DNA from: Paucibacter sp. KBW04
GTDB taxonomy: Bacteria > Pseudomonadota > Gammaproteobacteria > Burkholderiales > Burkholderiaceae_C
Assembly (NCBI RefSeq): GCF_003852425.1
Contig: NZ_QAJN01000002.1
Coordinates: forward strand, 62,001 to 126,000
DNA length: 64,000 bases
Direction of reading: 5' to 3'
Shown here piece after piece: positions 30,632 to 60,686 of this stretch. Each line of letters opens with the position of its first letter. Positions within the stretch are counted from its first letter, which is position 1. The notes below the pieces were generated by a model, which did not search any database, was not told where the DNA came from, and worked only from the letters and a program-made list of their open reading frames with translations. Made by a program: the position numbers and the translations under genes.

Positions 30632-31723
30632 ATGAGTTTTTCCTGCAGGCTCAAGGCCAGGATGGAGCAAAGCGTCGATCAGGGCCCGCCACCTCCTTTC
30701 GCTGCCGCAAGGCCCGCGCCTTATGCGAGACGCTGGGCACTGGGCCTGCTTGCCGCGCTGCTGCCCGGCTGGGCCTTGGCTGCCGGCACGGCGCGCACGC
30801 CTGAGCGCTACCCCGAGCGCGAAATCAAGCTCCTGATCCCCTACGCCCAGGGCGGCGACGCGGACGGCACGGCCCGCCGCCTGGCGCCGCTGGCCCAAAA
30901 GCATTTGCCGGGCGCCCAGTTCCTGCTGGAGAACCGGGTCGGCAACTCCGGCATGACGGCCGCCCAGGAACTGGCCTCCAGCCCCAAGGACGGCTACACC
31001 TTGATGCTGGGTCGGGTGGGCAATCTGGTGATCGCGCCGGCACTCAGCGCACAAGGCGGCTACGACTGGCAGGCCTTCAGCTTTCTGGCCGTGCTGGAGA
31101 TCAGCCCCATGGTCTGCGCCGTGGGCAAGAATTCCAAGCTTTCGAACCCGCGCGAGTTGCTCAATGAGCTGCGCCGCAGCCCCGGCAAGCTCAAGTACGC
31201 CACCGCCGGCGCGGGCAGCATCCAGAACATGAGCGTCAGCTATATGCTCAAGCTCGGCGGCCTCAAGCCCACGGCGGCCAGCGCCCTGCACCTGAGCAGC
31301 TCGGGCGAGGTCTTGCAGGCGCTGGAGCGCGGCGAGGTGGACTTCATCTGCAGCAATGCCTCCACCGTCATTCCCAGGGTCAAGGAGGGCCGGCTGAACG
31401 CCTTGTTCAGCACCTCCAGCACCCGCATGTCGGAGTTCAGCCAGATCCCCACGGCCAGCGAGGTCGGCCTGCGCGATATGGTCAAGCTCTCGGGCTGGTC
31501 GGCCCTGGTGGCGCCACGCGGCCTGCCGGCTGCGGTGCTGGCCCAATGGCAGGACGCGCTCAAACGCGTGGCCCGCGACCCTGAATGGCTGAGTGCCACC
31601 CCTCAGTTCGGCAGCAGCGGCATCCAGTTCGACGCCAAGGCAGCGGAGCGCTTCGCGCGCGAGCAAGCCAGCTTGTTCGAGGAGCTGGCCGTGCTCAGCC
31701 GCATGCAGGGCAGTGCCCCATGA
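30632..31723 (+). CDS. Bug-family periplasmic receptor paired with a hybrid kinase
   Basis: This is a 363-aa Bug/TctC-like binding protein. The N-terminal 50 residues include a signal segment (RRWALGLLAALLPGWALAAG) after an unusually long, charged leader. Bug core motifs follow: YPEREIKLLIPYAQGGDAD, DGYTLMLGRVGN and ASEVGLRDM. Two conserved cysteines (PMVCAV and DFICSN) could form a disulfide. The ATG at 30632 has GGAG 7 bases upstream. A CHASE hybrid histidine kinase starts 80 bases downstream and no TctA/TctB permease is near, so a sensory rather than transport role is inferred. Confidence 0.87.
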   Translation: MSFSCRLKARMEQSVDQGPPPPFAAARPAPYARRWALGLLAALLPGWALAAGTARTPERYPEREIKLLIPYAQGGDADGTARRLAPLAQKHLPGAQFLLENRVGNSGMTAAQELASSPKDGYTLMLGRVGNLVIAPALSAQGGYDWQAFSFLAVLEISPMVCAVGKNSKLSNPRELLNELRRSPGKLKYATAGAGSIQNMSVSYMLKLGGLKPTAASALHLSSSGEVLQALERGEVDFICSNASTVIPRVKEGRLNALFSTSSTRMSEFSQIPTASEVGLRDMVKLSGWSALVAPRGLPAAVLAQWQDALKRVARDPEWLSATPQFGSSGIQFDAKAAERFAREQASLFEELAVLSRMQGSAP

Positions 31724-31803
31724 GTGCAGCGTGAGTCCGGCATGAGTGCAGCAGCAACACCCACCGGCCCAGGAGCCCAGGTCTGAGCAGGCCTCCTTCG
31801 CCC

Positions 31804-35202
<3,399 letters not shown>

Positions 35203-35238
35203 TACCGCATCTCGAAGCGGGGGGGCTGGCTTGCGCGA

Positions 35239-36615
35239 TCAGGATGGCAGCGCGTTTTTGTAGACCTTGCCGTCCTTCATGATCAGCAAGAAATTCTTGG
35301 CCGGGTCGGCGATCAGCTGGATGTTCTCCAGCGGATTGCCGTCCACCAGCAGCAGATCGGCCAGCGCGCCTTCCGCCACCACGCCCAGCTTGCCGCGATA
35401 AGGGCTGCGCGCACCGGCCAGGGCCAGCAGCTCGGCATTCACCGAGGTGCCCATCTTCAAGACCTCCACGGGGCTGAACCAGCGCGTCATCTTGGCCAGT
35501 TGCGCCCCCTGGGTGGCCGCGGCGCTGGCGTCGAACAAGGTGTCGGTGCCCCAGGCGGTCTTGATCTTGTATTTGCGGGCCAGGGCATAGGCGGTGTCGG
35601 TGCCGGCATACATCTCCAGCTGCTTCAGGCGATTGGGCGAGCCTTCCGGGAAGGGCGAAGGGCGGTCGTCCACAAAGGGCTGCAAGCTCCACCAAACACC
35701 TTTTTCGGCCATCAGCTTGGCGGTGGGCTCGTCCAGCAACTGGCCGTGGTCGATGCAGCGCACGCCGGCCTCGATGGCCTGGCGCACCGCCCGCGGCGTG
35801 TAGGCATGGACGGTGACGTAAGTGCCCCAGTTCTCGGCCGCCTCGACGGCGGCGCGCAGCTCGGGCACGGTGAACTGGGTGACGTCCAGCGGGTCGTAGC
35901 TGGAGGACACGCCACCACCGGCCATCAGCTTGAGCTGGGAGGCGCCCAGCGCCAGCAGCTCGCGGCTGCGTTGGCGCACGGTGTCGGCGCTGTCGGCGAT
36001 GACGGCGGCGCCCACGCGCTCGCTAAAGCTGTACTCGCCGGGCCGCGCGGGCAACTCGTTAGGCAGGCGGAAGTCGCCATGGCCGCCGGTTTGCGAGATG
36101 AAGGCACCGGAAGGGAAGATGCGCGGCCCGTTGACCAGGCCTGCATCGATGCCGCGCTTGAGGCCGAACACCGGCCCGCCCAGATCGCGGATGGTGGTGA
36201 AGCCCCGCATCAGCATGTCGTTGGCCGCCTTCACCGCCGCCACATTGACGAAACCCACATCGCTGGTGAGGATGACCATCTGCGGCACGGTGGCAAACAT
36301 GATGTGGGTGTGGGCGTCGATCAACCCTGGCATGAGGGTGCGGCCCTCGCCTTGCACCCGGCTCACCTCGGCGCCGGCCGGCACCGAAATGGGCGCGCTG
36401 GAAATCGTCTTCACCACATTGCCCATCACCAGCACATTGGCCGGGGCGCTGAGCTTGTCGGCCGTGCCGTTGAAGACGCGCACATTCTCGAACAGCACGC
36501 CGCTGGGCTTGGGCGCAGACGCAGTGGCTGCCGCTTGGGCGAGCGCCAAACCTTGGCTTGCAACACCGCCCAGCATCAGCAAGGCGCTCAGGATTTTTCT
36601 ACGCTTGATTCGCAT
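35239..36615 (-). CDS. Exported amidohydrolase-family metal-dependent hydrolase
   Basis: This 458-aa member of the amidohydrolase superfamily resembles imidazolonepropionase-like and Xaa-Pro or arginine-carboxypeptidase-type enzymes. A signal peptide is visible (RRKILSALLMLGGVASQGLA). Metal-binding residues appear in DAHTHIM, in VHAYTPRA, in DHGQLL and in GTDTLFD, so the site looks complete. The C-terminal part (GVVAEGALADLLLVDGNPLE) is the family's composite beta domain. The ATG at 36613-36615 is chosen because it places the basic n-region correctly. It converges with the kinase gene. The substrate is not predictable. Confidence 0.87.
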   Translation of the reverse strand: MRIKRRKILSALLMLGGVASQGLALAQAAATASAPKPSGVLFENVRVFNGTADKLSAPANVLVMGNVVKTISSAPISVPAGAEVSRVQGEGRTLMPGLIDAHTHIMFATVPQMVILTSDVGFVNVAAVKAANDMLMRGFTTIRDLGGPVFGLKRGIDAGLVNGPRIFPSGAFISQTGGHGDFRLPNELPARPGEYSFSERVGAAVIADSADTVRQRSRELLALGASQLKLMAGGGVSSSYDPLDVTQFTVPELRAAVEAAENWGTYVTVHAYTPRAVRQAIEAGVRCIDHGQLLDEPTAKLMAEKGVWWSLQPFVDDRPSPFPEGSPNRLKQLEMYAGTDTAYALARKYKIKTAWGTDTLFDASAAATQGAQLAKMTRWFSPVEVLKMGTSVNAELLALAGARSPYRGKLGVVAEGALADLLLVDGNPLENIQLIADPAKNFLLIMKDGKVYKNALPS

Positions 36616-36699
36616 TCTCGGCAGTCCCAGTTTGAGATGGCGAAAGACCATCTTTACTGTCGATTCTGCGTCAGAACCAGCCTCGCGCCGAGCTCAGGA

Positions 36700-37287
36700 T
36701 CAGGCGCCAAAAGGCGTGGGCAGGGGCAGGGTGTGGGGCGTGTTGGCGTAGTGCGCCGCGCTCATCTCGTAGAGCAGGCTGGGGGGCTGGCCGGGCACAT
36801 CGGCGAGTGAGCCCTTGAGCCGCATGCCGATGCGCTCCAGCGTCTTGCGCGAGGGCATATTGGCCGGCCGCACCACGGCCAGCACGGCCGGGGCATAGAG
36901 CTGCTCAAAGGCCAGGGCCAGCGCGGCCAAGGCCATTTCGGAGGCATAGCCCTGACCCCAGGCCTGGGGCCGGAAGCGGAAGTACAGATTCAAGCCCGTC
37001 GGCCCCAGGCTGGGCTTGGCCATGATGCCGCCAAAGCCCAGCAATTGCTCGGGCTGCTCCCGCGAGGCAATCGCCCAGTAGCCAAAGCCCTGCGCCTGCC
37101 AATGCGCGAGCCAGCCCTGCAGCAAGGCCTCGGCCTCCTGTGTCGAGCGCATGGGGCCACCCGGATTGAAGCGGTTGGTGATGGGGTCGGCGTGGATCTC
37201 GAAGATCGCTGCCAAATCCGCTGCGGCCGGCTGGCGCAGCAGCAAACGGTTCGTCTCTATCGCCTCCAAAGACGCCTGCAATGTCAT
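36700..37287 (-). CDS. GNAT acetyltransferase, RimJ/RimL type
   Basis: This 195-aa N-acetyltransferase has the RimJ/RimL-like opening ETNRLLLRQPAAADL, the acetyl-CoA-binding region YFRFRPQAWGQGYASEM (a Q/RxxGxG-like loop) and the late motif NMPSRKTLERIGMRLKG. The ATG at 37285-37287 has GGAG 9 bases upstream; a GTG 15 bases further is possible. Its target is unknown. It is divergent from the SOS mutasome operon. Confidence 0.85.
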   Translation of the reverse strand: MTLQASLEAIETNRLLLRQPAAADLAAIFEIHADPITNRFNPGGPMRSTQEAEALLQGWLAHWQAQGFGYWAIASREQPEQLLGFGGIMAKPSLGPTGLNLYFRFRPQAWGQGYASEMALAALALAFEQLYAPAVLAVVRPANMPSRKTLERIGMRLKGSLADVPGQPPSLLYEMSAAHYANTPHTLPLPTPFGA

Positions 37288-37452
37288 GTGTTCCGGCTCC
37301 ACAAAGATGACGAACTGGTGAAAACCCTGATTCTGAACCGTAAAACGGCGTCGGGACCCAGAGCCCCCTCAAACAAAGGATGTTTGCGAGAAATCTTGCG
37401 GGCAAGCCACCTAGCGTGCCAAGAAACTTCCGGCCCCTGCCGCCTTGTCATA

Positions 37453-37472
37453 TACTGTACAAACATACAGTA
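37453..37472. promoter_or_regulatory. LexA-binding SOS box of the imuA operon
   Basis: CTGTACAAACATACAG (37455-37470) matches the LexA consensus CTGT-N8-ACAG exactly, and the symmetry extends to TACTGT...ACAGTA. It is centred about 35 bases before the imuA start. DNA damage would therefore induce imuA-imuB-dnaE2. Confidence 0.92.
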
Positions 37473-37497
37473 GTTAATCTGCCAAGCGCTTTTCTCC

Positions 37498-38307
37498 ATG
37501 CCCTCCCCCGCCGTTTTTTGCCCCGCGCAGCCCTCGGCCAGTTCGCCGGGCCTGAGTGCGCAGGCCCTGCACGCCCAGCTCTGGCGCGCCAGCCATCTGG
37601 GCAGCAACCCCAAGCCCTGCGTGAGCAGCGGCTTTGCGGCGCTGGACGCGGAGCTGCCCGGCAAGGGCTGGCCCACCCACGGCCTGAGCGAAATCCTGCA
37701 AGACGCCACCGTGCATCTGGAGTGGCGCCTGCTGGCCCCGGCCTTGCAAGCCTTGTTGAGCGAGCCGGCACAAAGCCGGCCGCTCCTGCTGATCAACCCA
37801 CCGCTAACCCCAAATTTACCCGGCCTACAAGCCAGCGGCCTGCCGCCGCGCCAGCTGGTCTGGATTCAAGCCTGCAGCCCTCAGCAGCAGCTCTGGGCCA
37901 CCGAGCAAGCCATCAAGGCCAATGCGGCCGCCGCCGTGCTGGCCTGGCTGCCCCAGGCCAGGCCCGAGCAGATCCGGCGTTTGCAAAGCCATGCCCAGGC
38001 CTCAGCGGCGCCCGTTTTTCTGCTGCGCCCCTCCAGCGCCCGCAGCCAGTCCTCGGCCGCGCCGCTACGCCTGGCCCTGCGGCCGGGGCGCGACTGGTGC
38101 TTGCATCTGCACATCCTCAAACGCCGCGGCCCCTGCCATGAAGGCGAGCTGGCTCTACAAGCCCTGCCCGCCGGCCTGCAGCAGGTGCTGACGCCTCGCA
38201 TGCTGAGCCATCCCTGGCCGCTGCGGCCCGACATCAGCACAACACCCAGCCTGCCTCACCATGCACTGGCTCGCCCTGCTCCTGCCGCCGCCCTCGGCAT
38301 CGCCTGA
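37498..38307 (+). CDS. imuA: ImuA, SOS-induced mutasome protein
   Basis: ImuA (SulA/RecA-like) is part of the ImuA-ImuB-DnaE2 translesion synthesis machine. The 269-aa protein has the family features GFAALDAELPGKGWPTHGLSE and LPPRQLVWIQACSPQQQLWA, a RecA-like core without a full Walker motif. The C-terminal region overlaps the imuB start by 47 bases in another frame. The start at ATG 37498 lies 28 bases after the LexA box, so the transcript leader is short. Confidence 0.92.
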   Translation: MPSPAVFCPAQPSASSPGLSAQALHAQLWRASHLGSNPKPCVSSGFAALDAELPGKGWPTHGLSEILQDATVHLEWRLLAPALQALLSEPAQSRPLLLINPPLTPNLPGLQASGLPPRQLVWIQACSPQQQLWATEQAIKANAAAAVLAWLPQARPEQIRRLQSHAQASAAPVFLLRPSSARSQSSAAPLRLALRPGRDWCLHLHILKRRGPCHEGELALQALPAGLQQVLTPRMLSHPWPLRPDISTTPSLPHHALARPAPAAALGIA

Positions 38308-39592
38308 GCCATCGGCACAACTCGCCCTGGCCTGGTGGGCCCTGCAGTTCACGCCGCGGGTGGCCTGCCTGGAGGAGGCGGTGGTGCTGGAGGTGCAGAG
38401 CAGCCTGCGCTTGTTCGGCGGCGCGCCGGCCCTGCACCGCAGCCTGCAGCCGCGCGCAGAGCAAGCCGGCCTGGCCCTGCACGCCGCCGCTTGGGCGCCC
38501 AGCAGCTTGGGCGCCTTGGCCTTGGCGCGCAGCCGCCCCGGTTTAGATGAAGCACTGCAATGGCCGGCCGAACAAGCTTTTAGCGAACAGCTGGACGCCC
38601 TGCCCCTGCCCACCCTGAGCGCCTGCCAGCCCCATCTGCCCATGCTGGCCCGCTTGGGCCTGCGCCGCTTAGGTGAGCTGCGCCGCCTGCCCCGCCCCGC
38701 CCTGGCGCGGCGCTTTGGCCAAGGCTTGCTGCTGGCCCTGGACCGCGCCTACGGCGACCTGGCCGAGGCCCATGCCTGGGTGGAGATCCCGGAGCAATTC
38801 CAGGCCCGGCTGGAACTGCCCCAGCGCAACGATAACGCCATGGCTCTGCGGCACCATGCCCAGCACCTGCTGCAGCAGCTCTGCGCCTGGTTAGCCGCCC
38901 GCCATGCCGGCGTGCAAGGCCTGAGCCTGCGCTGGGCCCACGACGCCATGCGGGCCCGCGAGATCGCCAGCCATGGCGAGCTGCGCCTGCAAACGGCCGA
39001 GATCAGCCGCGACTACCGCCACCTCAGCCGCTTGCTGAACGAGCATCTGCTGCGCCTGCAGCTGCCCGCCCCGGTGGGCGAGATCAGCCTGCATGCCGAA
39101 CAGATCCTGCCCCTGCGCGAACACAGCGCCAAGCTGCTCGCACCGGGTGCTGGCGAGGGCGGCGAGCCGCAAGAATCCATCACCCAGCTGCTGGAACGCT
39201 TGGCCCTGCGCCTAGGCGCCGATCAGGTGCGCTGCGGCCAGCTGCGCGAGGACCACCGGCCCGAGCAAATGCAGCACTGGCAGGCCTGGCCGGGCAGCGC
39301 GCCGCAGTCAGCCGCCCGCCTGCCCAGCTGCCCCCAACCCAGCTGGCTGCTGCCCGAGCCTTTGCGCCTGGAGGTGCAGCGGGATCAGCCGCTCTACCAA
39401 GGCCCGCTGCAATTGCTGGCCGGCCCGCAGCGCGTCGAGGGTGGCTGGTGGCAAAACGAGGGCCAGCCCGCCCAGCGCGACTACTTCCTGGCGCTGAGCG
39501 AGACGGCCGGGGCGCTGTGGATTTTTCATGAGCGCCTGCCCAGCGGCCGCCTGGACGAGCAGGGTTGGTTTTTGCACGGGTTCTTTGCATGA
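38261..39592 (+). CDS. imuB: ImuB, non-catalytic Y-family polymerase-like protein
   Basis: ImuB bridges DnaE2, ImuA and the beta clamp during error-prone repair. The 443-aa protein has the family's SSLRLFGG motif and C-terminal GPLQLLAGPQRVEGGWW motif. The N-terminal part (MHWLALLLPPPSASPEP) lacks the DxD catalytic acids of active Y-family polymerases, as expected. It overlaps imuA by 47 bases and dnaE2 by 4 (ATGA), so the three are co-translated. Confidence 0.93.
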   Translation: MHWLALLLPPPSASPEPSAQLALAWWALQFTPRVACLEEAVVLEVQSSLRLFGGAPALHRSLQPRAEQAGLALHAAAWAPSSLGALALARSRPGLDEALQWPAEQAFSEQLDALPLPTLSACQPHLPMLARLGLRRLGELRRLPRPALARRFGQGLLLALDRAYGDLAEAHAWVEIPEQFQARLELPQRNDNAMALRHHAQHLLQQLCAWLAARHAGVQGLSLRWAHDAMRAREIASHGELRLQTAEISRDYRHLSRLLNEHLLRLQLPAPVGEISLHAEQILPLREHSAKLLAPGAGEGGEPQESITQLLERLALRLGADQVRCGQLREDHRPEQMQHWQAWPGSAPQSAARLPSCPQPSWLLPEPLRLEVQRDQPLYQGPLQLLAGPQRVEGGWWQNEGQPAQRDYFLALSETAGALWIFHERLPSGRLDEQGWFLHGFFA

Positions 39593-42500
39593 GCAGCACA
39601 GCGAAACCCAAGGCCCTGCCCGCCTACGCCGAGCTGCACTGCCTCAGCCACTATTCCTTTTTGCGCGGCGCCTCCAGCCCGGGCGAGCTGGTGGAGCGCG
39701 CCCAGCATCAGGGTTATGCCGCCCTGGCCATCACCGACGAATGCTCGCTGGCTGGCGTGGTTCGCGCTCATGTGGCTGCCAAGACCTGCGGGCTCAAGCT
39801 CTTGATAGGCTCCGAGTTCGCCGTCCATACGGACGAAGCTGAGGAAGACGCCGCACCGCAATTCAAACTGGTGCTGATGGCCCGCAATCTGCAAGGCTAT
39901 GGCGACCTTTGCCAGTTCATCACCGATCTGCGCCGCAACTCGCCCAAAGGAACTTACCGCCTGACGCTGGCGCAATTGCAGATCGAGGCCCCGCGCCTGG
40001 GCCGCGACTGCCTGGCCTTGCTGCTGCCCCTGCGCAGCAGCTCGGGCGCGCAACTACTAAACGATACCGCTTGGCTACAACGTCACTTCAGCGGCCCTAT
40101 CTGGCTCGGGGTAGCGCTGCTGCGCGAGCTGGGCGATGAGCGCTGGCTGCAGCGCCTGCGCGAGCTCTCCACCGCCAGCGGCCTGCCCCTGCTGGCCGCA
40201 GGCGATGTACATATGCATGTGCGCTCGCGCAAGCCCTTGCAAGACGTGATGACGGCCACCCGCATGAACCGCCCCATCGCCGCCTGCGGCCTGGACCTGC
40301 AACCCAATGCCGAGCGCCATCTGCGCAGTCGCCTGCGCCTGGCCCAGCTCTACCCGCCCGAGCTGCTGAACGAGACCCTGGCGGTAGTGGCAGCCTGCGA
40401 GTTCTCGCTGGACGAGATCCGCTACCGCTACCCCACCGAGGTGATCCCCCCCGGCAGCACCCCGGCCCGCCATCTGCGGGTGCTGACCGAGACAGGCGCA
40501 CGCAAGCGCTGGCCGGGCGGCGTGGATGCGCGCTGGCAAGCCTTGATTGAGCATGAGCTGGACCTGATCAACGAGCTGGGCTACGAGCATTACTTCCTCA
40601 CCGTGGCCGATATCGTCAGCTTTGCCCGCGGGCGCGGCATCCTCTGCCAAGGCCGCGGCTCGGCCGCCAATAGCGTGGTGTGCTTTTGCCTGGGCATCAC
40701 CGAGGTGGACCCGGGGCGCAGCAGCGTCTTGTTCGAGCGCTTCATCAGCCGCGAGCGCAAGGAGCCGCCCGATATCGATGTGGACTTCGAGCACGAGCGC
40801 CGCGAGGAGGTGATCCAGTACCTCTACCAAAAATACGGCCGCGAGCGCGCCGCGCTCACCGCTGTGCTGATCTGCTACCGCCCGCGCAGCGCCATCCGCG
40901 ATGTGGGCCGTGCTCTGCAGCTGGACGAGGCCTTGATCGAGGCCCTGGCCAAGGACCACAGCGGCTGGAGCGAGGAGGTCTTGCCCGAGAGCCGCTTGCA
41001 AGAGCTGCGCCAAGAACTCAGGCTGGACCTCGACGCCCCCAGTCTGCGCCAGCTGCTCGTGCTGACCCGCCAGCTGATGGGCATGCCCCGGCACCTGAGC
41101 CAGCACCCCGGCGGCTTTGTGCTGACCGAGGGGCCGCTCTCGCGCCTGGTGCCGATCGAGAACGCCAGCATGGCCGAGCGCACCGTCATCCAATGGGACA
41201 AGGACGATATCGACGCGCTCAATCTGATGAAGGTGGATGTGCTGGCCTTAGGGATGCTCAGCGCCCTGCGGCGCAGCTTTGCGCTCATCTCTGAGCTGCG
41301 CGGCAGGCCTTTCGGCATGAGCGATGTACCGGCCGAAGACACAGCCACTTACGACATGATTTGCCGGGCCGACACCATCGGCGTGTTCCAGATCGAATCA
41401 CGCGCCCAGATGTCCATGCTGCCGCGCCTGCAGCCGCGCTGTTTTTACGACCTGGTGGTCGAGGTCGCCATCGTGCGGCCCGGCCCCATCCAGGGCGGCA
41501 TGGTCCATCCCTATCTGACGAATCGGGCCAAGCCGGAGGGCTCCATCACTTACCCGAAGAAGGAACTGGAGGCCGCACTCAAACGCACCTTTGGCGTGCC
41601 GATTTTTCAGGAACAGGTGATGCAGGTGGCCATGATTGCCGCCGGCTTCACCGCCGGCGAGGCCGATCAGCTGCGCCGCGCCATGGCGGCCTGGAAGCGG
41701 CCCGGTGATCTGCAAAAGTTCTACGACAAAATCATCACGGGCATGGCCGAGCGCGGCTATACGCAGGACTTTGCCGAGGCCATCTTCCGCCAGATCAAGG
41801 GCTTTGCCTCCTACGGTTTTCCGGAGTCGCATGCGGCCAGTTTTGCCCTGCTGACCTATCAGTCTTGCTGGGTCAAAAAGCATGAGCCGGCGGCCTTTTT
41901 ATGCGCCCTTTTGAACTCCCAACCCCTGGGCTTTTACACCCCCAGCCAGCTGGTTCAGGACGCCCGCCGCCACCAGGTCGAGGTGCGGGCCGCGGACGTC
42001 ATGCACAGCGGGGTGGACAGTGAACTGGAGTTAATCCCCGGCCAGGACCAGCCCGCCGTTCGCCTGGGCCTGCGCCTGGTGTCCGGCCTGCCCAAGGCCG
42101 CCGCCCAGCGCATCGAAGCTGCCCGCAGCCAAGCCCCGTTCAGCGACACGCAAGACCTGGCCCTGCGCGCCGGCCTGGACCAGCAAGAGATGCAGCAACT
42201 CGCCGCTGCCGATGCATTGATGAGCCTGGCCGGCCACCGCCGCCAGCAAGTCTGGCAGGCCAGCGCCCAGCGCGCCCTGCCACCTCTGCTGCAAGGCTCC
42301 TTGCCGCTGGAGGACCCGCTTGAACTGCCGGCCGCCCGCGAAGGCGAAGAAGTGCTGTGGGACTACGCCTCGCTGGGCCTGACCCTGCGCAGCCACCCGC
42401 TCAAACTCCTGCGCCCGCAGCTGGCCAAACGCGGCCTGCTGACGGCCGAGCAATTGCAGGCCTGGCGCAGCGGCCGCCAAGCGCACGCCTGCGGCATCAT

Positions 42501-42756
42501 CACCGTGCGCCAACGCCCGCAAACCGCCAAGGGCACACTCTTCATCAGCCTGGAAGACGAGACCGGCAGCGTGCAGGTCATCGTCTGGCCCGATGTCTAC
42601 GCGGCGAATCGAACGCTGCTACGCAATGCCCGGCTCTTGGCCGCGCATGGCAAATGGCAGTTTGAAAACAAGGTGCGGCATCTGCTGGCGCAGCGCTTTG
42701 ACGACTTGACGCCGATGCTGGGAAGGCTGGGGGTGGAGAGTCGGGATTTCCGCTGA
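39589..42756 (+). CDS. dnaE2: Error-prone DNA polymerase DnaE2
   Basis: DnaE2 is the C-family polymerase that performs SOS translesion synthesis. The 1055-aa protein has an N-terminal PHP domain (YAELHCLSHYSFLRGASSP) and palm catalytic aspartates D395 and D397 (PDIDVDF) with a third near D550 (LMKVDVLALG). A helix-hairpin-helix and OB-fold C-terminal region follows (GTLFISLEDETGSVQVIVW). The ATG at 39589 overlaps the imuB stop as ATGA. Length is typical of DnaE2 and shorter than DnaE1. LexA-controlled through the upstream box. Confidence 0.96.
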   Translation: MSSTAKPKALPAYAELHCLSHYSFLRGASSPGELVERAQHQGYAALAITDECSLAGVVRAHVAAKTCGLKLLIGSEFAVHTDEAEEDAAPQFKLVLMARNLQGYGDLCQFITDLRRNSPKGTYRLTLAQLQIEAPRLGRDCLALLLPLRSSSGAQLLNDTAWLQRHFSGPIWLGVALLRELGDERWLQRLRELSTASGLPLLAAGDVHMHVRSRKPLQDVMTATRMNRPIAACGLDLQPNAERHLRSRLRLAQLYPPELLNETLAVVAACEFSLDEIRYRYPTEVIPPGSTPARHLRVLTETGARKRWPGGVDARWQALIEHELDLINELGYEHYFLTVADIVSFARGRGILCQGRGSAANSVVCFCLGITEVDPGRSSVLFERFISRERKEPPDIDVDFEHERREEVIQYLYQKYGRERAALTAVLICYRPRSAIRDVGRALQLDEALIEALAKDHSGWSEEVLPESRLQELRQELRLDLDAPSLRQLLVLTRQLMGMPRHLSQHPGGFVLTEGPLSRLVPIENASMAERTVIQWDKDDIDALNLMKVDVLALGMLSALRRSFALISELRGRPFGMSDVPAEDTATYDMICRADTIGVFQIESRAQMSMLPRLQPRCFYDLVVEVAIVRPGPIQGGMVHPYLTNRAKPEGSITYPKKELEAALKRTFGVPIFQEQVMQVAMIAAGFTAGEADQLRRAMAAWKRPGDLQKFYDKIITGMAERGYTQDFAEAIFRQIKGFASYGFPESHAASFALLTYQSCWVKKHEPAAFLCALLNSQPLGFYTPSQLVQDARRHQVEVRAADVMHSGVDSELELIPGQDQPAVRLGLRLVSGLPKAAAQRIEAARSQAPFSDTQDLALRAGLDQQEMQQLAAADALMSLAGHRRQQVWQASAQRALPPLLQGSLPLEDPLELPAAREGEEVLWDYASLGLTLRSHPLKLLRPQLAKRGLLTAEQLQAWRSGRQAHACGIITVRQRPQTAKGTLFISLEDETGSVQVIVWPDVYAANRTLLRNARLLAAHGKWQFENKVRHLLAQRFDDLTPMLGRLGVESRDFR

Positions 42757-49230: not shown

Positions 49231-49311
49231 ATGCATTCCCTGATGCGGGCGAAGACCCGCATCGACAAATTTTGAAGAACGAAACCGTGATTGAGTGTGG
49301 CGTGGCGAGAC

Positions 49312-51221: not shown

Positions 51222-51746
51222 ATGAGCAAAACCGCCCTCCTCCTCATCGACATCCAGATGGACTATTTCCCCGGCGGCCTGTTCCCGCTGTGGCAGCCCG
51301 AGGCGGCCCTGAGCCGCAGCCTGGCCGCCCTGCGGCGCGCCCGCGAGCTGGGCATGCCTGTCGTGCTGGTGCAGCATGTGGCCGACCCCGCCAAGGGCCC
51401 GGCCCCCTTTTTCAACCAAAGCAGCGCAGGTGTCGCTCTGCACCCGGACTTGCTGGCCGCCGCTGGCCCCGAACCCCTGATCGTGATCAAGCGCTTTGCC
51501 GACAGCTTCGAGGGCACAACGCTAGAGGCCACGCTGAGCGACCTGGGTGTTGAGGCGCTGCTGATCGGCGGCATGATGACGCAGAACTGCGTGGCCTTCA
51601 CCGCCCTCTCCAAGGCGGCCGAGAAGTACCGCCTGCGCATACTGCCGGACTGCTGCACCAGCGTCAGCGAGATGATTCACCGCATCGCGCTGAGCGGCGT
51701 GTCGACCCGGGTGAGCTTGGTTCCCAGCGAAGAGGCCTTGGCCTGA
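51222..51746 (+). CDS. Isochorismatase-family cysteine hydrolase
   Basis: This 174-aa enzyme of the nicotinamidase/isochorismatase superfamily has a catalytic aspartate in LLIDIQMDY, a lysine in VIKRFADS and a cysteine in MMTQNCVAFT. The amide or ester substrate cannot be named. The ATG at 51222 has CGGAG about 11 bases upstream. It is divergent from the GlxA-type AraC regulator, which probably controls it. Confidence 0.92.
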   Translation: MSKTALLLIDIQMDYFPGGLFPLWQPEAALSRSLAALRRARELGMPVVLVQHVADPAKGPAPFFNQSSAGVALHPDLLAAAGPEPLIVIKRFADSFEGTTLEATLSDLGVEALLIGGMMTQNCVAFTALSKAAEKYRLRILPDCCTSVSEMIHRIALSGVSTRVSLVPSEEALA

Positions 51747-51753
51747 GCCGCAA

Positions 51754-51787
51754 CAAAAAAGGCCGAACCCTTGTTCCGGGTCCGGCC
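51754..51787 (-). terminator. Rho-independent terminator after the acyl-CoA reductase
   Basis: On the minus strand GGCCGGACCC pairs with GGGTTCGGCC (one G-U wobble) and is followed by TTTTTTGTTG. It lies 35 bases beyond the acyl-CoA reductase stop and between convergent genes. The plus-strand reading has one mismatch and a poor T-run. Confidence 0.85.
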
Positions 51788-51821
51788 AGCTCACAAAAGA
51801 GAAATCAGTGCTGCTGAATGC

Positions 51822-53825: not shown

Positions 53826-54106
53826 CGCAGTCTCCTATTGTTTGAATTTGCGCTGCGATTCTTGACCATTCGCCGAGCGCCGCCCCCCGCGCTTACCCGC
53901 AGTTGCCAGGCTCGGCCAGCGCACGCCAAACTCGCAGGCGCAAGCCCAAAACCCTGGCAAAGGCCGGCAATAGGTAGAGGGCACAGCCTAGGAAGTACCG
54001 ATGCGCAGGGCACGACTGTGGCTCTATAGTGGGACAAGCGCCCGCAAAGATGGGCCGCATGAATCAAGCAAAGCACAGCAAATTGTCATCACAAAGGACT
54101 GAGAAC

Positions 54107-54955
54107 ATGGTCAAGAAGCTTCAGAAAATGGCGGCTAAAAAGAACGCGGCAGCTAATAGCTCCTTGGGTGCGGCCTTTGGCTCTGCCATCCCTGCAGGCC
54201 TGCTCGACAGCCAACTGGCCCAGAACATCAAGGACTCCGCCCAGCAAATCTGGGCCGCCGGTCTGGGTGCCTTCTCCAAGGCCCAGGGCGAAGGTGGCAA
54301 GGTGTTTGAAGCCCTGGTCAAGGAAGGCGTCAATCTGCAGAAGAAGACCCAGTCCGCCGCCGAAGACAAGCTCGGTGCCATGGCCAGCAAAATGAGCGGC
54401 ATGGCCGGCGACGTCGGCAACAAGGCCGGCCAGCATTGGGACAAGCTGGAATCCATCTTCGAAGAACGCGTGGCCCGTGCCTTGAAGCGCCTGGGTGTGC
54501 CCTCGGCCAAGGATGTGGACGAACTGATCGAACGCCTGAACGCATTGAGCGATCATCTGGATCTGCCTAAGGCCAAACCCGCCAAGGCCGCGAGCAAGGT
54601 CAGCAAGCCAGCAGCCAAAGCGGCCGCCAAGCCCGCTGCAAAGTCTGCCGCCAAGCCCGTGGCCAAGAAGGCGACGCCCAAGGCTAGCAGCGCTGCGCCC
54701 AAGTCGCCCTTCAAGGCAGTGAGCAAGGCCGGCAAGACGGTCAAGGCCGCCGCTGACAGCGCCCCGGCTGCCGCCAAAAAGGCCGTGGCTCAGGCCGTCA
54801 AAACCGCCAAGCCCGCCACCAAGGCCTTGAGCAGCGCGGCCAAGGCTGTCAAGGCCGCCGCAGCCCCGGCGGCCAAGAAAGCCCCGGCAAAGAAGGCCGC
54901 CGCCCCCAAGGTGGAAGCCAAGGCCGAGGTCAAGGTCGAGGCCGCCCAGGCCTGA
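54107..54955 (+). CDS. PhaF/PhaI-like phasin with histone H1-like tail
   Basis: This 282-aa granule-associated protein has an N-terminal phasin domain (about 30-160: AQNIKDSAQQIWAAGLGAFS, then the helical NLQKKTQSAAEDKL) and a C-terminal Lys/Ala/Pro-rich tail of (A)AKP/AAK repeats, like PhaF, which binds PHA granules and DNA. The tail is a low-complexity protein repeat and not a mobile DNA repeat. The ATG at 54107 has AAGGA upstream; a longer frame to 54029 is less likely. It is divergent from the acyl-CoA reductase gene. No phaC lies in the window. Confidence 0.88.
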   Translation: MVKKLQKMAAKKNAAANSSLGAAFGSAIPAGLLDSQLAQNIKDSAQQIWAAGLGAFSKAQGEGGKVFEALVKEGVNLQKKTQSAAEDKLGAMASKMSGMAGDVGNKAGQHWDKLESIFEERVARALKRLGVPSAKDVDELIERLNALSDHLDLPKAKPAKAASKVSKPAAKAAAKPAAKSAAKPVAKKATPKASSAAPKSPFKAVSKAGKTVKAAADSAPAAAKKAVAQAVKTAKPATKALSSAAKAVKAAAAPAAKKAPAKKAAAPKVEAKAEVKVEAAQA

Positions 54956-55287
54956 CGTCAAGCAAAGCCACCGAGTCGGCCGCGCTCAAGCGGTCGCGCT
55001 GAGTAGCAGCGCTCAGCCAGGCAAACAAGCCTTGCCTCAAGCCGGCACAGCCCTCTCACCCGGAGGTCTGGCCGGCTTTCTTGTTGCTTGAGCGCCGAAT
55101 TCTGCGGCAAGAATGCACACCGAAAACGCAACAAGCGCGGCCCAGACAGGTATTCTTCTAAGCATCGAAAGCTATGGATGTGCGGCTCGCCTGAGCCCGC
55201 TGAGTTTGCCGGGCAGGCCCAGCAGGCAAGCGGATTCCGCGCCGACCAGACGAGTTTGAATCGCGAACTCAAGTCGAGGAGCGGGCG
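54956..55287. other. 332-bp gap between the phasin and the second Bug-kinase operon
   Basis: No gene is supported here. It contains the phasin terminator (55039-55092), a weak 6-bp hairpin GCTGAG...CTCAGC (54998-55017) and a probable promoter for the following Bug operon. A GGTATTC at about 55150-55160 is reminiscent of the octamers upstream of the other Bug genes, but the match is weak. Confidence 0.5.
55039..55092 (+). terminator. Probable terminator after the phasin gene
   Basis: AAGCCGGC (55039-55046) pairs perfectly with GCCGGCTT (55071-55078), followed by TCTTGTTGCTTG. The loop is long (24 bases) and partly paired. It lies 84 bases after the phasin stop. Confidence 0.6.
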
Positions 55288-56400
55288 ATGGCATGGATGG
55301 TGGCAGGCAGACGGGCAGCAGGCGCCCTGATCGATTCCTTGACCCTGGAGCCCAGGCTGGCAGGCGAGCCGCGTGCTCCGCAGCGACGCGGGCTTGCTAG
55401 GCCCAAGCCCGAGCGCAACCACGCCGGGCTCAAGCTTGGCGCCATCTGGCTGGCCTTGGCCGCCTGCCTCAGCAGCCCGGCCAGCGCCGAGAACTACCCC
55501 GAGCGTGAAATCACCCTGATCGTGCCCTTCTCGCGCGGCGGCGACACCGACCTTGCCGCCCGCGCCCTGCAAACCCATGTACAGAAACACTTCCCCAAAA
55601 TCAGCCTGCGCCTGGACCATCACGAGGGCGAGTCGGGTGCGGTGGCCACCCGGCACCTGATCCAATCCCCAGCCGATGGCTACACCTTGATGGTGGGCCG
55701 GGTCAGCAATCTGGCCATCGTGCCAGTGCTGGACACCCGCGCCAGCTATAGCGCCAAGGACATGAGCGTGATCGCCATGATCTCGATCAATCCGCTGGTC
55801 TGTTCGGTGCGACGCGACGCCCCGTTCAGCAAGCCGCGCGACCTGATCAACTATATGCGTGCCAACCCCGGCAAGCTGCGCTACGGCACGGCCGGCGCCA
55901 TGACCATCCACCATCTCAGCGTGCTTTATCTGCTGAAGATCTCAGGGCTTAAATCCGATCACGCCACGGCCAAGCCCTATGCGAACGGTGCCGACGCCGT
56001 CGCGGCGCTGATGGACGGCTCGGTCGATCTGGTCTGCGGCAACACCGCCACCGTGCTGCCCGCGCTGCGCGACAAGCGCTTGCAAGCGCTGTTCACCACC
56101 GCCTCGGCCCGCATCCCGGCCTTGCCCGAGGTGCCAACCGCGCAGGAAGTGGGGCTGCGCGATATGCAGCGCATGCTGGGCTGGGTGGCCCTGGTGGGGC
56201 CGGCCCATCTGCCGGAGCCCGTGGTGCAAAGCCTGCGCCAGGTGATCGAGCAGACCGTCAACGATGCGCAATGGACCGCCTCGGAAGAGCGCACCGGCTC
56301 CATACGCATCCCGCGCTCGGTGCGCCAGCCCGAGAAGTTCATCAAGGATCAGGTCGAGTTCTACGACGAACTGGTGGGCTCCATAGGCCTGAGGAAATGA
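55288..56400 (+). CDS. Bug-family periplasmic receptor, first of the second module
   Basis: This 370-aa Bug/TctC-like protein has a long basic leader of about 45 residues, then a signal segment (GAIWLALAACLSSPASA) containing LAAC, so a lipoprotein form is possible. Core motifs are YPEREITLIVPFSRGGDTD, DGYTLMVGRVSN and AQEVGLRDM. Cysteines lie in PLVCSV and DLVCGN, the same positions as in the other receptor. The ATG at 55288 has GAGGAG upstream. It overlaps the next Bug gene by ATGA and lies upstream of a CHASE hybrid kinase. A sensory role is inferred. Confidence 0.86.
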   Translation: MAWMVAGRRAAGALIDSLTLEPRLAGEPRAPQRRGLARPKPERNHAGLKLGAIWLALAACLSSPASAENYPEREITLIVPFSRGGDTDLAARALQTHVQKHFPKISLRLDHHEGESGAVATRHLIQSPADGYTLMVGRVSNLAIVPVLDTRASYSAKDMSVIAMISINPLVCSVRRDAPFSKPRDLINYMRANPGKLRYGTAGAMTIHHLSVLYLLKISGLKSDHATAKPYANGADAVAALMDGSVDLVCGNTATVLPALRDKRLQALFTTASARIPALPEVPTAQEVGLRDMQRMLGWVALVGPAHLPEPVVQSLRQVIEQTVNDAQWTASEERTGSIRIPRSVRQPEKFIKDQVEFYDELVGSIGLRK

Positions 56401-57449
56401 GGATGAAGATCATGGCCACCTCTTTGCTTCAAACCCTGGGGCTAGGCCTGCTTGGGCCCGCCGCCTGCCTGGCGACCTTGCTACTCGGCGCAAGCAGTAC
56501 CTCGGCCGGGGCGGCCGGCGGCGCCGATGCAGCGCTGGCCCCGCCCCTCACCATCATCGTGCCCTTCACGCCGGGCGGTGACTCCGATCTATCGGCCCGT
56601 GCGCTCGCACCTTTTGCCCAAAAGTATCTGCACGCCAGCAGCGTGCAGGTGCTGAACAAGCCCGGCGCCGCTGGCCAAGGCGGGGTGCCCAGCACCAAGG
56701 CTTTTCTGGAAGCCACGCCGGACGGCAACACCGTGCTGATGGGGCGCGGTGGCAATATCGCCGTGGCGCCGGCCCTGATGGTGCATGCGCCCTACACGCC
56801 GGAGGACTTCACCATCCTGGCCGTGCTGCAGATCGACCCGCTGGTCTGTGCCGTGCGAGCCGACTCGCCCTACCAAAAGCCGCGCGATGTGGTGGACGAT
56901 ATCCGGGCCCGACCCGGCGCCGTGCGCTACAGCACGGCCGGCATAGGCTCGGTGCAAAACCTCTCGGTGCTTTACTTCGTCAAGATCTCCGGCCTGAAGC
57001 CGGACGGCGTCAAGGCCGTGCATCTGGCCAGCAGTGGCGACGCCACCCGCGCCTTGCTGGACGGTGAGGTCGAACTGTCCTGCGGCAGCGTCTTGCTGAT
57101 GGTGCCGCATATCAAGAGCGGGCGCCTGCGCGGGCTTTTTGGCACCTCGCCCACCGGCCGCCTGGCCCAATTGCCCGCCATGCCCAGCGCCCAGGAAGTG
57201 GGCCTGCGCGATATGAGCAAGATGGTGGGCTGGTCGGTGCTGGTGGCGCCGCCCAAAATGCCCGCACCGGCGCTGGCGCGCTGGCGCACCGCCCTGCAAA
57301 AAATCGCCGACGACCCGCAGTGGGTCAATGGCATCGAACAATCCGGCGGCCTGGTCGCCATCAAGTCCCTGCCCCGCCCGGCCGAATTCGTCAACGATCA
57401 GTTCAATCTCTACGAAGAGCTGGGCATCAATCTCGGTCTACGAAAGTAG
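56397..57449 (+). CDS. Bug-family periplasmic receptor, second of the second module
   Basis: This 350-aa protein begins MRMKIMATSLLQTLGLGLL with a signal peptide, followed by LTIIVPFTPGGDSDLSARAL, GNTVLMGRGGN and AQEVGLRDM. Conserved cysteines lie in PLVCAV and ELSCGS. The C-terminus ends NLGLRK, as the upstream Bug ends IGLRK. It starts by ATGA overlap and ends 9 bases before the hybrid kinase, so all three are co-expressed. It is closer in sequence to the Bug at 30.6 kb than to the classical Bug at 19.7 kb. Confidence 0.87.
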   Translation: MRMKIMATSLLQTLGLGLLGPAACLATLLLGASSTSAGAAGGADAALAPPLTIIVPFTPGGDSDLSARALAPFAQKYLHASSVQVLNKPGAAGQGGVPSTKAFLEATPDGNTVLMGRGGNIAVAPALMVHAPYTPEDFTILAVLQIDPLVCAVRADSPYQKPRDVVDDIRARPGAVRYSTAGIGSVQNLSVLYFVKISGLKPDGVKAVHLASSGDATRALLDGEVELSCGSVLLMVPHIKSGRLRGLFGTSPTGRLAQLPAMPSAQEVGLRDMSKMVGWSVLVAPPKMPAPALARWRTALQKIADDPQWVNGIEQSGGLVAIKSLPRPAEFVNDQFNLYEELGINLGLRK

Positions 57450-57458
57450 CGCCCGACC

Positions 57459-60400
57459 ATGGCTGAAGCGCGCCGCTGGGGTTTTTCATGGCTGGCCTGG
57501 AGCATTTTTGCTCTGGTGCTGGTCAGTGGAGGCTCCGCCAGCTGGCTGCTCTATCGCGCCATGTCCACCACCCTGGACGTGCTGACCGAAGAGCGTTTGA
57601 ACGCCGCAGGCCGGGCCGTCCTGCAAGCCCTGGATACCGATCTGAACGGCGCCATCGATGCCATGCGCAGCACCGCTTTGATGATGGGGGCGCTGAACGC
57701 CCCCGATGAACAAGCTTGGCGCGCCTTTACCGTCCCCATCATGAAGGGCCGCACACCCTTGCGCGCCATGGACTGGGCTCCGCGTAGCCCTGCCGAGCAA
57801 GGCCAGGACCGCTTTCCACGCAAGCTGGTGACCCCGCCCAATATCCTGCCCCTGGGCGAGGATCTGGCGCGTCAGCCCCTCTGGTTGAGCAGCAGCCAGA
57901 TGGCGCGCGACAGCGGCGTCACCGTCTCCACCGCACTCACCGATTTTCAGCTGCGCCCGGACGCTGAAGAGGTCACACAGCCCGGTGCCGACGGCTTTGA
58001 CCGCGGTCGCGGTTTGATTCTGGTAACCCCGGTTTTTGCGCCCGGCACGACGACTGGATTGAAGGCCAGGCGCGAGCGCTTGAGAGGTTATGTCTCGGGT
58101 TTGTTCGACATCAACTTCTTCATGCAGGAGGCCTCCTTCCGGGCCGATTCCGCCCATCTGGACCTGCTGGTCTTCGACGTGACCGATCAGCGAAGCCTCC
58201 AGTACGCCCAGCGCGGTGAGCACAGCGATCTGGACCCGGAGACGCTGGAAGCCTACAAGCCCCGACCCGGCGATCTGCAACTCTCGGTGGTGGTGGCATC
58301 GCGATCCTGGGAGCTGGTGCTGCACCCGCGCAGCAGCTTTTTTGCGGCCGACGACCGCGGCTCCATCCACGCTTTTGCCGCCGTGGCGGCCCTGGTCACC
58401 CTGCTCTTGGCAGCCGCCGTGTTCTGGGTCGGGCACAGCCAATATGTGGCGGCGCAGGCGCGGCGCGCGGCCGAGGCGGCGGATCGCTCCAAATCGAGCT
58501 TTCTGGCCAATATGAGCCACGAGATCCGCACGCCCATGAATGCCATCATCGGCATGAGCATGCTGCTACTCAAGACCGAGCTGAACCCACGGCAAAAAGA
58601 CTTCACCGAAAAAATTCAGTCCAGCAGCCTGAACCTGCTGGGCATCATCAACGACATCCTCGACCTATCCAAGATCGAGGCCGAGAAACTCAGCATCGAG
58701 AACATCGAGTTTGAATTGGAGCGGGTGCTGGACAACGTCGCCCTGCTGGTGGGGGAGAAGGCTGCGGCCAAAGGCCTGGAGGTGATTTACGACCTGGCGC
58801 CCGAGTTGCCGCGCCGGCTGATCGGCGACCCGCTGCGCCTGGGTCAAATCCTGATCAACTACGCCAATAACGCGGTCAAGTTCACCGCCCAGGGCGAGAT
58901 CGTGCTGCGCATCACGGTGCGCGAGCAAAGTGCCGAGCAGGTGCTGCTGGAGTTCTCGGTCAGCGACACCGGCATCGGCCTCTCGGCCGAGCAGATGAGT
59001 CGCTTGTTCCGCAGCTTTGAGCAGGCCGACAGCTCCGTCACCCGCCAGTACGGCGGCACCGGCCTGGGCCTGGTGATCGTCAAATCGCTGGCCCAGCTGA
59101 TGGGCGGCGAGGCCGGCGTGGACAGTGTGCTGGGCCAGGGCAGCCGCTTTTGGTTCACCGCCCGCCTGGGCCTGGCCGAGGCCCAAGACGAGCCCGCCAC
59201 CGTGCAACAACTCGGCCTGGCCAAGGCCTTGCGCGTCCTGGTGGTGGACGACAACGCCAGCGCCCGCCAGGTGCTGGGCCTGCAGCTGCAACGCCTGCAA
59301 CTCAGTTTTGCCGAAGCCCAAGACGGCCAGCAAGCCCTGGACATGCTCGCCGCGGCACAAGCCGGCCCCCAGCCCTTTGACCTCGTCTTGATGGACTGGC
59401 TGATGCCTGGCATGGACGGTGTGGCTGCCGCCCGCCTGATCCGCGCACGCTGGCCTGCGCTGGCCGTGGTGATGGTGACGGCCCATGGCCGCGAGGAAAT
59501 CGTCAGCCAGGCCTCGCAGCTGGGCATCAGCGAGTTTCTGATCAAGCCCGTCAACGCCTCGGCCTTGCTCGGCACCTTGCTGCGCGCCAGCGGCGTGGCC
59601 CAGGCCCTGAGCGAGGGCCGTGGTCTGCCCCTGGACGAGGGCGAGATCCGCATGGCCCCCTTCCACGGCGCCCGCATCCTGCTGGTGGAAGACCACCCCA
59701 TCAACCAGCAACTGGCCGTCGAGCTGCTGAGCGAGGTGGGCCTGCACGTCGAGGTCGCCGACAACGGCGCCATCGCCCTGGAGATGCTGCAGAAAAATGC
59801 TTACGAGCTGGTGTTGATGGACATGCAGATGCCGGTGATGGACGGCCTCAGCGCCACCCAGGCCCTGCGCCGCCTGCCCGGGCTGGAGCAAATCCCCGTG
59901 CTGGCCATGACGGCCAACGCCATGGACGCCGACCGCGACGCCTGCCTGCAAGCCGGCATGAACGACTTCATCTCCAAGCCCATAGACCCGGCCCAGCTCT
60001 GGCGCGCCTTGTCCAAATGGCTGCCCGCGCCGGAGTCGGCCGACACCATCCCAGCGCCCCTTTCGGCCGCCACCAGCCCCAAGCCCGAAGCGGCCGAAGC
60101 GCTGCCCAGCGTACTGCCCGGGGTCGACCTCAATCTCGGCCTGCGCTACAGCAATCGCAAGACCGCCACCTACCTCTCGGTGCTGCGCCAGTTCGCGCGC
60201 GGTCAGGCGCAAAGCAATGCGCAAATTGAGCAAGCCCTGGCCAGCGGCGATCTGGCCCTGGCCCAGCGCCTGGCGCATACCGTCAAGGGTGTGGCCGCCA
60301 ATATCGGCGCCACCCAGGTCCCGCCCCTGGCCGAAGCGCTGGAGCAGGGCTTGCGCGACGGCCTGCCTCTGAGCGAACTGCAGGCCCGCGCCGCCGCCCT

Positions 60401-60686
60401 CGCCCCCGCGCTGGACGCCTTGCTGGCCGCCATCGGCCAGGCTCTGCCCGAGGTGGCAAGAACTGAGCCCAGCACCACACTCCAAGCCAGCCCCAGCGAG
60501 ATCGCTCAGCGCCTGGCCGAGCTACGCGAGTTGCTCCAAGAAGCGGATGCCAGCAGCCCCGCCTTTTTGAGCGACCACCAGGCCTTGTTCCAACAAGCCC
60601 TGGGCGATCGATTCGCCCCCTTGGCCGCCGCCTTGCAGGCATTTGATCTAGAGGAAGGCTTGAAGATCCTGCAAGGCCAGGGCTGA
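57459..60686 (+). CDS. CHASE-domain hybrid sensor histidine kinase (HK-REC-REC-HPt), second copy
   Basis: This 1075-aa kinase has TM1 at about 10-32, a periplasmic CHASE-like domain at about 45-290, and TM2 at about 305-325. HisKA has H354 ([10 protein letters not shown]). The HATPase domain has [16 protein letters not shown] and GGTGLGL. Receivers carry D646 ([10 protein letters not shown]) and D788 ([10 protein letters not shown]), and the HPt domain has H940 (AHTVKG). The architecture is identical to the kinase at 31804, and the second receivers are near-identical in motifs. It lies 9 bases after two Bug receptors. No output domain or adjacent regulator is present. Confidence 0.93.

What the first reader, a model, noticed from the sequence alone, without database searches (positions are those of the whole stretch)
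30632..60686. Duplicated module: Bug periplasmic receptor(s) followed by a CHASE hybrid histidine kinase
Two separate operons have the same layout: one Bug plus an 1132-aa kinase (30632-35202), and two Bugs plus a 1075-aa kinase (55288-60686). Both kinases are CHASE-HisKA-HATPase-REC-REC-HPt with every phosphorelay residue present. Neither operon has TctA/TctB permeases or a DNA-binding output. Bug proteins that act as periplasmic co-receptors of sensor kinases are known (for example the Bordetella BctC/BctE citrate system). Bug genes coupled to a CHASE multi-step phosphorelay look like a distinct sensory system, in which the Bug binds a ligand and presents it to the CHASE domain. The Bug-CHASE contact is inference.
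Basis: partly seen in the sequence, partly recalled or inferred. Interest (0 to 1): 0.78.

Follow-up and report, generated by a model that had tools for sequence, protein, structure and literature searches.

The report
Bug proteins paired with CHASE receptors
Two gene sets in this bacterium each put small-molecule-binding periplasmic proteins next to a membrane receptor that signals into the cell; related pairs in two other bacteria suggest that one branch of these binding proteins has become a sensing partner rather than a nutrient carrier, though nobody has yet shown that the two proteins touch.

Summary
In detail: module A is one Bug (TctC) gene plus a CHASE-HisKA-HATPase-REC-REC-HPt kinase, module B two Bugs plus a like kinase. 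The linkage is not private to this genome. A second species of the genus has Bug + CHASE-PAS hybrid kinase, and another genus has Bug + CHASE-PAS-GGDEF, each with ATGA-overlapping genes. These five Bugs form one well-supported clade (100/99); 0 of 44 other Bug loci viewed show a CHASE gene beside the Bug. But linkage is rare (4 of 114 CHASE genes viewed) and labile: a close CHASE-GGDEF orthologue lacks the Bug at the same lysC-tRNA-Ser site, and sibling species lack both window modules at their sites. Best reading: a transport-free Bug lineage serving as ligand-loaded co-receptor for one CHASE lineage, with interchangeable outputs. That is a new variant of the known solute-binding-protein/receptor design (BctC-BctE, NspS-MbaA). 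Bug-CHASE contact and the ligand are inference; for the CHASE5 kinase AruS and an SBP encoded near it, a two-hybrid test was negative (PMC11113362).

The parts
30632..31723 (+). BugA: TctC-family periplasmic solute-binding protein, 363 aa; start not settled (long n-region before a signal-peptide-like stretch, by eye)
   Evidence: Pfam TctC 114.5 bits; AlphaFold2 model pLDDT 72.3, pTM 0.68, best solved fold MatC 6hke, BugD 2f5x
31804..35202 (+). KinA: CHASE-HisKA-HATPase-REC-REC-HPt hybrid kinase, 1132 aa
   Evidence: Pfam; phosphorelay motifs; CHASE profile matches plant AHK4 3t4j E 3e-10
30517..35238 (.). Module A as a unit: the stretch missing from sibling species, between the stop of the Crp-type gene and the stop of the amidohydrolase gene
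   Evidence: G009 aligns 25893-30516 and 35239-42756 with 28 bp between them; G007 aligns to 30511 and from 35270 with 131 bp between
55288..56400 (+). BugB1: TctC-family solute-binding protein, 370 aa, start not settled
   Evidence: Pfam TctC 133.8 bits
56397..57449 (+). BugB2: TctC-family solute-binding protein, 350 aa, start overlaps the BugB1 stop (ATGA)
   Evidence: Pfam TctC 115.8 bits; overlap
57459..60686 (+). KinB: partial CHASE-HisKA-HATPase-REC-REC-HPt hybrid kinase, 1075 aa; CHASE lacks about 32 residues present in KinA
   Evidence: Pfam; phosphorelay motifs; alignments
54662..62930 (.). Variable stretch that holds module B (with a WYL-type regulator and a GNAT gene); its flanks (phasin, M32 peptidase) lie 0.4-2.6 kb apart in five sibling species
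   Evidence: G007, G015, G004, G012, G008; M32 and GNAT by Pfam, WYL and phasin

Best explanation
Each module is a sensing unit without a transporter. The Bug is exported to the periplasm and binds a small organic anion. The loaded Bug docks on the periplasmic CHASE domain of its partner and changes the kinase's activity. The signal then runs HisKA -> REC -> REC -> HPt inside the kinase and on to a response regulator encoded elsewhere. In a related pair of another genus the same sensory halves drive a diguanylate cyclase instead. One Bug lineage was recruited to this task once, in or before the common ancestor of the two genera, and has travelled with (and been lost from) one CHASE lineage. 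SHOWN: gene order, domains, phosphorelay motifs, near-zero gene spacing, recurrence in 3 genomes, one Bug clade, presence/absence of modules A and B at their sites. INFERRED: periplasmic location, ligand binding, Bug-CHASE contact, direction of signalling, the partner regulator, recruitment history.
For: Domains and motifs. Same arrangement in G005 and G070, with ATGA overlap of Bug and receptor genes in both. The five linked Bugs are one clade: 100/99 in 38 rows, 99 in 56 rows, and G005+G070 still pair (97) with the window Bugs left out. No CHASE gene beside the Bug in 44 distinct other loci (49 loci scanned, 5 repeats), so linkage follows the clade. Module A is present or absent as Bug+kinase together. 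No permease in the modules; 2 TctA against 9 TctC genes in the genome. Precedent that a TctC protein can be a co-receptor of a kinase: BctC-BctE (passages of PMC5812351; PMC9602780). The KinB CHASE has lost about 32 residues, kept in 15 of 16 aligned relatives, which would fit a receptor that reads a protein rather than a small ligand (inference).
Against: A close CHASE-GGDEF orthologue (G765, 67% identical to G070's in the CHASE region) has no Bug at the same lysC-tRNA-Ser site and no trace of one; G685's CHASE kinase, nearest to G005's, also has no Bug hit in the 1.5 kb upstream. So the receptor need not have a neighbouring Bug. Whether those genomes hold such a Bug elsewhere was not shown. 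Linked CHASE domains are not a clade. Adjacency is rare. For AruS (CHASE5) and PA4985 (SBP_bac_8), an SBP encoded near its gene, a bacterial two-hybrid test saw no interaction (PMC11113362, section read); CHASE5 is a different domain family from CHASE.
Confidence: 0.62

Rival explanations
1. The Bugs are orphan transport receptors (scavengers that lend ligand to one of the two TctAB permeases elsewhere) and the kinase senses the same compound directly through its CHASE domain; the genes are neighbours because they serve one nutrient, not because the proteins touch.
For: The genome has two TctA genes elsewhere. CHASE domains can bind small ligands themselves (AHK4 matched; ligand role recalled). 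A CHASE orthologue works without a neighbouring Bug in G765. AruS/PA4985 adjacency without two-hybrid contact (PMC11113362).
Against: The linked Bugs form a clade apart from the genome's other Bugs sampled, including the TctBA-linked one. Bug and receptor genes overlap or nearly touch at 3 of 4 Bug-receptor junctions. No catabolic or permease gene is inside the modules. Module A comes and goes as Bug+kinase only.
Confidence: 0.22
2. The neighbourhood is a neutral accident: orphan Bug genes are common in this order and some land beside a kinase gene.
For: Linkage is rare: 4 of 114 CHASE genes viewed. Many family genomes have numerous Bug candidates. The sites are variable between siblings.
Against: Four loci in three genomes of two genera carry the same order, all four with Bugs of one clade, and two of the four CHASE genes of a genome with only 9 TctC genes are involved. 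No CHASE beside 44 other Bug loci.
Confidence: 0.1
3. The Bug acts as a negative partner: it holds the receptor off until it is loaded or pulled away, in the manner of an accessory inhibitor, rather than activating it when loaded.
For: Receptors of the same lineage exist without a Bug, as expected if they signal by themselves. Accessory inhibitors of kinases are known (CpxP, seen only as a listing).
Against: No direct evidence for sign. BctC activates through BctE when citrate-bound (PMC5812351).
Confidence: 0.06

Closest known systems
BctC-BctE of Bordetella pertussis (TctC protein as co-receptor of a sensor kinase)
   Same: A Bug/TctC protein and a sensor kinase in one locus; the loaded Bug is reported to interact with the kinase (passages of PMC5812351, and PMC9602780).
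   Different: BctC is also the binding protein of a BctCBA citrate transporter and BctDE is a plain two-component pair. Here there is no permease in the module and the receptor is a CHASE protein with a multi-step phosphorelay (or GGDEF in G070). The sensor-domain family of BctE was not tested here.
NspS-MbaA of Vibrio cholerae (SBP + membrane GGDEF/EAL receptor)
   Same: Solute-binding-protein gene immediately upstream of a membrane receptor that it contacts, without transport (passages of PMC8079147). Parallels the Bug + CHASE-GGDEF pair of G070.
   Different: NspS is a polyamine-binding protein, not TctC; 'CHASE' was not found in that paper's text.
TorT-TorS type SBP/hybrid-kinase pairs (recalled)
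   Same: Periplasmic binding protein and hybrid kinase with REC and HPt domains encoded together; the own genome has a pair of that look at C14 (L276: Peripla_BP_4 then kinase).
   Different: Different SBP family and sensor domain; TorS was not compared here.
PA4985-AruS of Pseudomonas aeruginosa (SBP_bac_8 encoded near a CHASE5 kinase)
   Same: SBP gene near a kinase gene with a CHASE-type sensor (PMC11113362).
   Different: CHASE5, SBP_bac_8, and two-hybrid interaction was not observed.
Cytokinin receptors AHK4 / bacterial CHASE kinase 6k62
   Same: Same CHASE family by profile (E 3e-10 and 3e-8).
   Different: No SBP partner known to me; KinB lacks about 32 residues within the matched region.

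Membership tests
SBP-coupled sensor kinase systems (BctC-BctE kind) | Solute-binding protein and receptor encoded side by side | tested here: met
   also G005 and G070
SBP-coupled sensor kinase systems (BctC-BctE kind) | Direct contact of loaded SBP with the periplasmic sensor domain | not testable with these tools
   No complex prediction; KinA sensor model pLDDT 46.5
SBP-coupled sensor kinase systems (BctC-BctE kind) | Adjacent tctBA permease genes | tested here: not met
   None in the modules; the genome's two TctA genes lie on other contigs, C1 and C4
Bug/TctC family (PF03401) | TctC profile match and Bug fold | tested here: met
   114.5-133.8 bits; BugA model matches MatC, BugD, TphC
Bug/TctC family (PF03401) | Binds a small organic anion | not testable with these tools
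   Ligand not predictable; solved relatives are 20-27% identical
CHASE receptors (PF03924) | CHASE domain between two transmembrane helices | tested here: met
   KinA 97.1 bits, KinB 39.9 bits, partial; transmembrane helices by eye only
Multi-step phosphorelay hybrid kinases | His-Asp-Asp-His motifs in HisKA, REC, REC, HPt | tested here: met
   for KinA and KinB
NspS-MbaA kind | GGDEF/EAL output under an SBP-read receptor | tested here: not met
   Window receptors end in HPt; only the G070 relative has GGDEF

The most novel reading that the evidence does not exclude
One lineage of the huge, mostly 'orphan' Bug family has left transport altogether and become a dedicated co-receptor that clips onto CHASE receptors with different outputs (phosphorelay or c-di-GMP), moving between genomes as a two- or three-gene cassette; and this is one case of a wider habit in which CHASE receptors are read through solute-binding proteins of unrelated families (TctC here, SBP_bac_3 in 13 and SBP_bac_8 in 1 of 113 other CHASE genes viewed).
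Probability: 0.4. Interest if true: 0.66.

Novelty: new variant of a known kind. Interest (0 to 1): 0.5.

Why it matters
Burkholderiales can carry tens of Bug genes per genome with few permeases, and why is an open question (PMC5812351, PMC9602780 passages). A permease-free Bug clade tied to CHASE receptors would give part of an answer: some orphan Bugs are senses, not carriers. It would also give CHASE domains, whose ligands are mostly unknown, a protein partner whose ligand can be found by ordinary binding screens.

Tried and rejected
Kinase-core similarity as proof of module duplication: rejected, since KinA's core is 62% identical to KinB's and also 56-62% identical to 13 other matches of the genome; the sensory halves carry the argument. 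Linked CHASE as one clade: rejected (p-AU 3e-13). A trace of a lost Bug in G765 or G685: none above noise. Direct or inverted repeats of 7 bases or more across the two ends of module A: none in the short stretches compared; base composition and GC3 of the modules are like those of the neighbours, so no sign of recent foreign origin. AlphaFold2 of the KinA sensory region: unusable (pLDDT 46.5). Genome-contig scan with the three window Bugs: only two distant Bacillaceae Bugs, 25% identical. Plasmid collection: no match to the KinA sensory region; 20 records with distant Bugs, best 34-36% identical, neighbours not inspected. An invariant-looking cysteine pair in the Bugs (C162, C240 of BugA) was considered as a mark of the sensory clade and rejected as such: unlinked subfamily members share it.

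Limits: the genome search scored only 4-8 candidates per genome in the large searches; the CHASE sample was chosen as the strongest Pfam matches (30 loci) and the nearest to the linked CHASE (the rest), so frequencies are not unbiased; 2 of its 120 loci showed no CHASE frame with my profile, 5 were repeats, and one (L182) had only 402 bp upstream. Seven of the loci's list were seen only through loci with 1.5 kb upstream.
Full report
WHAT IS THERE. The window holds two modules about 20 kb apart. Module A: BugA (30632-31723), then 80 nt, then KinA (31804-35202). Module B: BugB1 (55288-56400), BugB2 (56397-57449, ATGA overlap), 9 nt, KinB (57459-60686). Pfam gives TctC for the three Bugs and CHASE-HisKA-HATPase-REC-REC-HPt for both kinases. 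The four phosphorelay motifs are present in each. The KinB CHASE is partial (profile 79-182, 39.9 bits; KinA 97.1 bits) and about 32 residues shorter than KinA's in the stretch between P119 and P163 of KinA; 15 of 16 aligned relatives keep that stretch. The CHASE profile matches plant AHK4 (E 3e-10) and a bacterial CHASE kinase, 6k62 (E 3e-8).

OWN GENOME. Nine TctC matches and two TctA. One TctC (C1) lies beside TctA, next to a divergent response regulator/kinase pair (L038). The other TctC genes outside the modules were viewed in 12-14 kb contexts and show no CHASE kinase by BLAST. Four CHASE genes in all, two of them KinA and KinB. KinA's catalytic core has 41 matches at E <= 1e-20, KinB best (62%) but closely followed by others. 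Of 15 further core matches viewed with upstream DNA, two have a solute-binding-protein gene directly before the kinase: SBP_bac_3 on C27 (L271, 38 nt gap) and Peripla_BP_4, a TorT-like look, on C14 (L276, 9 nt gap). So the window modules sit in a genome that repeatedly pairs binding proteins with kinases of one core family: 4 of 17 viewed.

ELSEWHERE. In the genus, 2 of 18 genomes have a close BugA relative (E <= 1e-40): the window genome and G005. G005 has Bug -> CHASE-PAS-HisKA-HATPase-REC-REC-HPt -> REC-HisKA-HATPase (L040). G070, another genus of the family, has Bug -> CHASE-PAS-GGDEF (L057). Bug and receptor genes overlap by ATGA in both. In 399 family genomes, 15 have a Bug matching the five-Bug profile at E <= 1e-70, 19 Bugs in all; 5 are the linked ones. 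In 399 genomes of the order, 31 have a match at E <= 1e-60. I scanned 49 loci of unlinked Bugs (44 distinct; mostly 1.5 kb flanks, one with only 819 bp downstream) with a CHASE profile: no hit, while the same profile found the CHASE genes of all the linked loci given to it (for flanks). Common neighbours of the unlinked ones, by eye, are thiamine-pyrophosphate enzymes and acyl-CoA synthetases.

TREES. The five linked Bugs are one clade: 100/99 with 38 rows and 99 with 56 rows. Their end branches are long (0.93-1.46 against a median of 0.29; one unlinked row, L062, is as long), so long-branch attraction was tested: without the window Bugs, G005 and G070 still pair (97); without G070, the other four hold (99). 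On the receptor side KinA and KinB are sisters (98/91), G070 pairs with unlinked G765 (100/100) and G005 with unlinked G685 (83/85); the linked CHASE domains as one clade are rejected (p-AU 3e-13). One Bug lineage has therefore stayed with one CHASE lineage while being lost from, or added to, single members.

PRESENCE AND ABSENCE. G070: lysC - tRNA-Ser - Bug - CHASE-GGDEF. G765: lysC - tRNA-Ser - CHASE-GGDEF with no Bug or visible remnant. Module A: in G009 (88-92% identical DNA around it) 28 bp, and in G007 131 bp, stand in place of window 30517-35238; of 16 siblings with the Crp-type gene, none has a BugA or KinA hit in the fetched flank (1.5 kb in most), and three show the amidohydrolase there. 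Module B: in five siblings (G007, G015, G004, G012, G008) the phasin and M32-peptidase flanks are 0.4-2.6 kb apart against 8.3 kb in the window, without a Bug or KinB-sensor hit (Pfam). Module A behaves as one two-gene unit; module B lies in a variable stretch with other genes.

CHASE GENES AT LARGE. CHASE is common in the family (156 of 250 genomes). I viewed 120 loci; 118 gave a CHASE frame, 113 after removing 5 repeats. Three have a Bug directly upstream (KinA, G005, G070); with KinB, 4 of 114. Two more (L117, L118) have the end of a Bug further upstream, beyond another binding-protein gene. Thirteen of the 113, in six genera, have an SBP_bac_3-type gene directly upstream (seven of these confirmed by Pfam), with GGDEF or GGDEF-EAL outputs in the three receptors checked. 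One has SBP_bac_8 (L128). This supports, but does not prove, a wider habit of binding-protein partners for CHASE receptors.

MECHANISM. Most likely the loaded Bug docks on CHASE and sets the kinase; the phosphoryl group passes His-Asp-Asp-His to a regulator encoded elsewhere. The ligand is probably a small organic anion, by family (solved relatives bind malate, aspartate, terephthalate and the like; titles and PMC5812351 passages). Two Bugs in module B may widen the ligand range or form a mixed complex (speculation). The shortened KinB CHASE fits a receptor that no longer binds a small ligand itself (inference).

LITERATURE. BctC-BctE is the nearest precedent (passages). NspS-MbaA is the parallel for the GGDEF form (passages). 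Against easy inference from adjacency: PA4985 and AruS (CHASE5), two-hybrid negative (section 18 read). My searches for Bug/TctC with CHASE kinases found no report: 0 papers; 3 papers, none about CHASE by title; listings. Only open-licence PMC papers were searched, so absence from print is not shown; a review on SBPs in signalling that I looked for by DOI is not held.

VERDICT. It is a new variant of solute-binding-protein-coupled receptors, not a new kind of system.

Noticed in passing
L114, L116, L117, L118, L121, L198, L202, L204, L205, L209, L210, L219, L226: A conserved pair in six genera of the family: an SBP_bac_3-type gene directly upstream of a CHASE receptor (13 of 113 CHASE genes viewed); the three receptors checked end in GGDEF or GGDEF-EAL. 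More widespread than the Bug pair and perhaps the better test case.
   Followed up: partly
L128:2-3075: SBP_bac_8/SBP_bac_1-type gene overlapping a CHASE-HisKA-HATPase kinase gene.
   Followed up: no
L276:2178-5401 and L271:2713-5101 (own genome, C14 and C27): Peripla_BP_4 (TorT-like look) and SBP_bac_3 genes directly upstream of kinases with the same core family as KinA.
   Followed up: partly
L040:9636-10880: A REC-HisKA-HATPase gene overlaps the end of the G005 Bug-linked kinase gene; possible next step of that phosphorelay.
   Followed up: no
window:30632-31723, 55288-57449 and most of the 32 Bugs of alignment A5: A cysteine pair (C162, C240 of BugA) conserved in over 90% of the aligned subfamily; the two cysteines are not both present in the three more ordinary Bugs of the same alignment. 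Possible disulfide, not tested.
   Followed up: partly
L117:3-371 and L118:3193-3561: End of a Bug gene before the SBP_bac_3-CHASE pair in two species of one genus.
   Followed up: no
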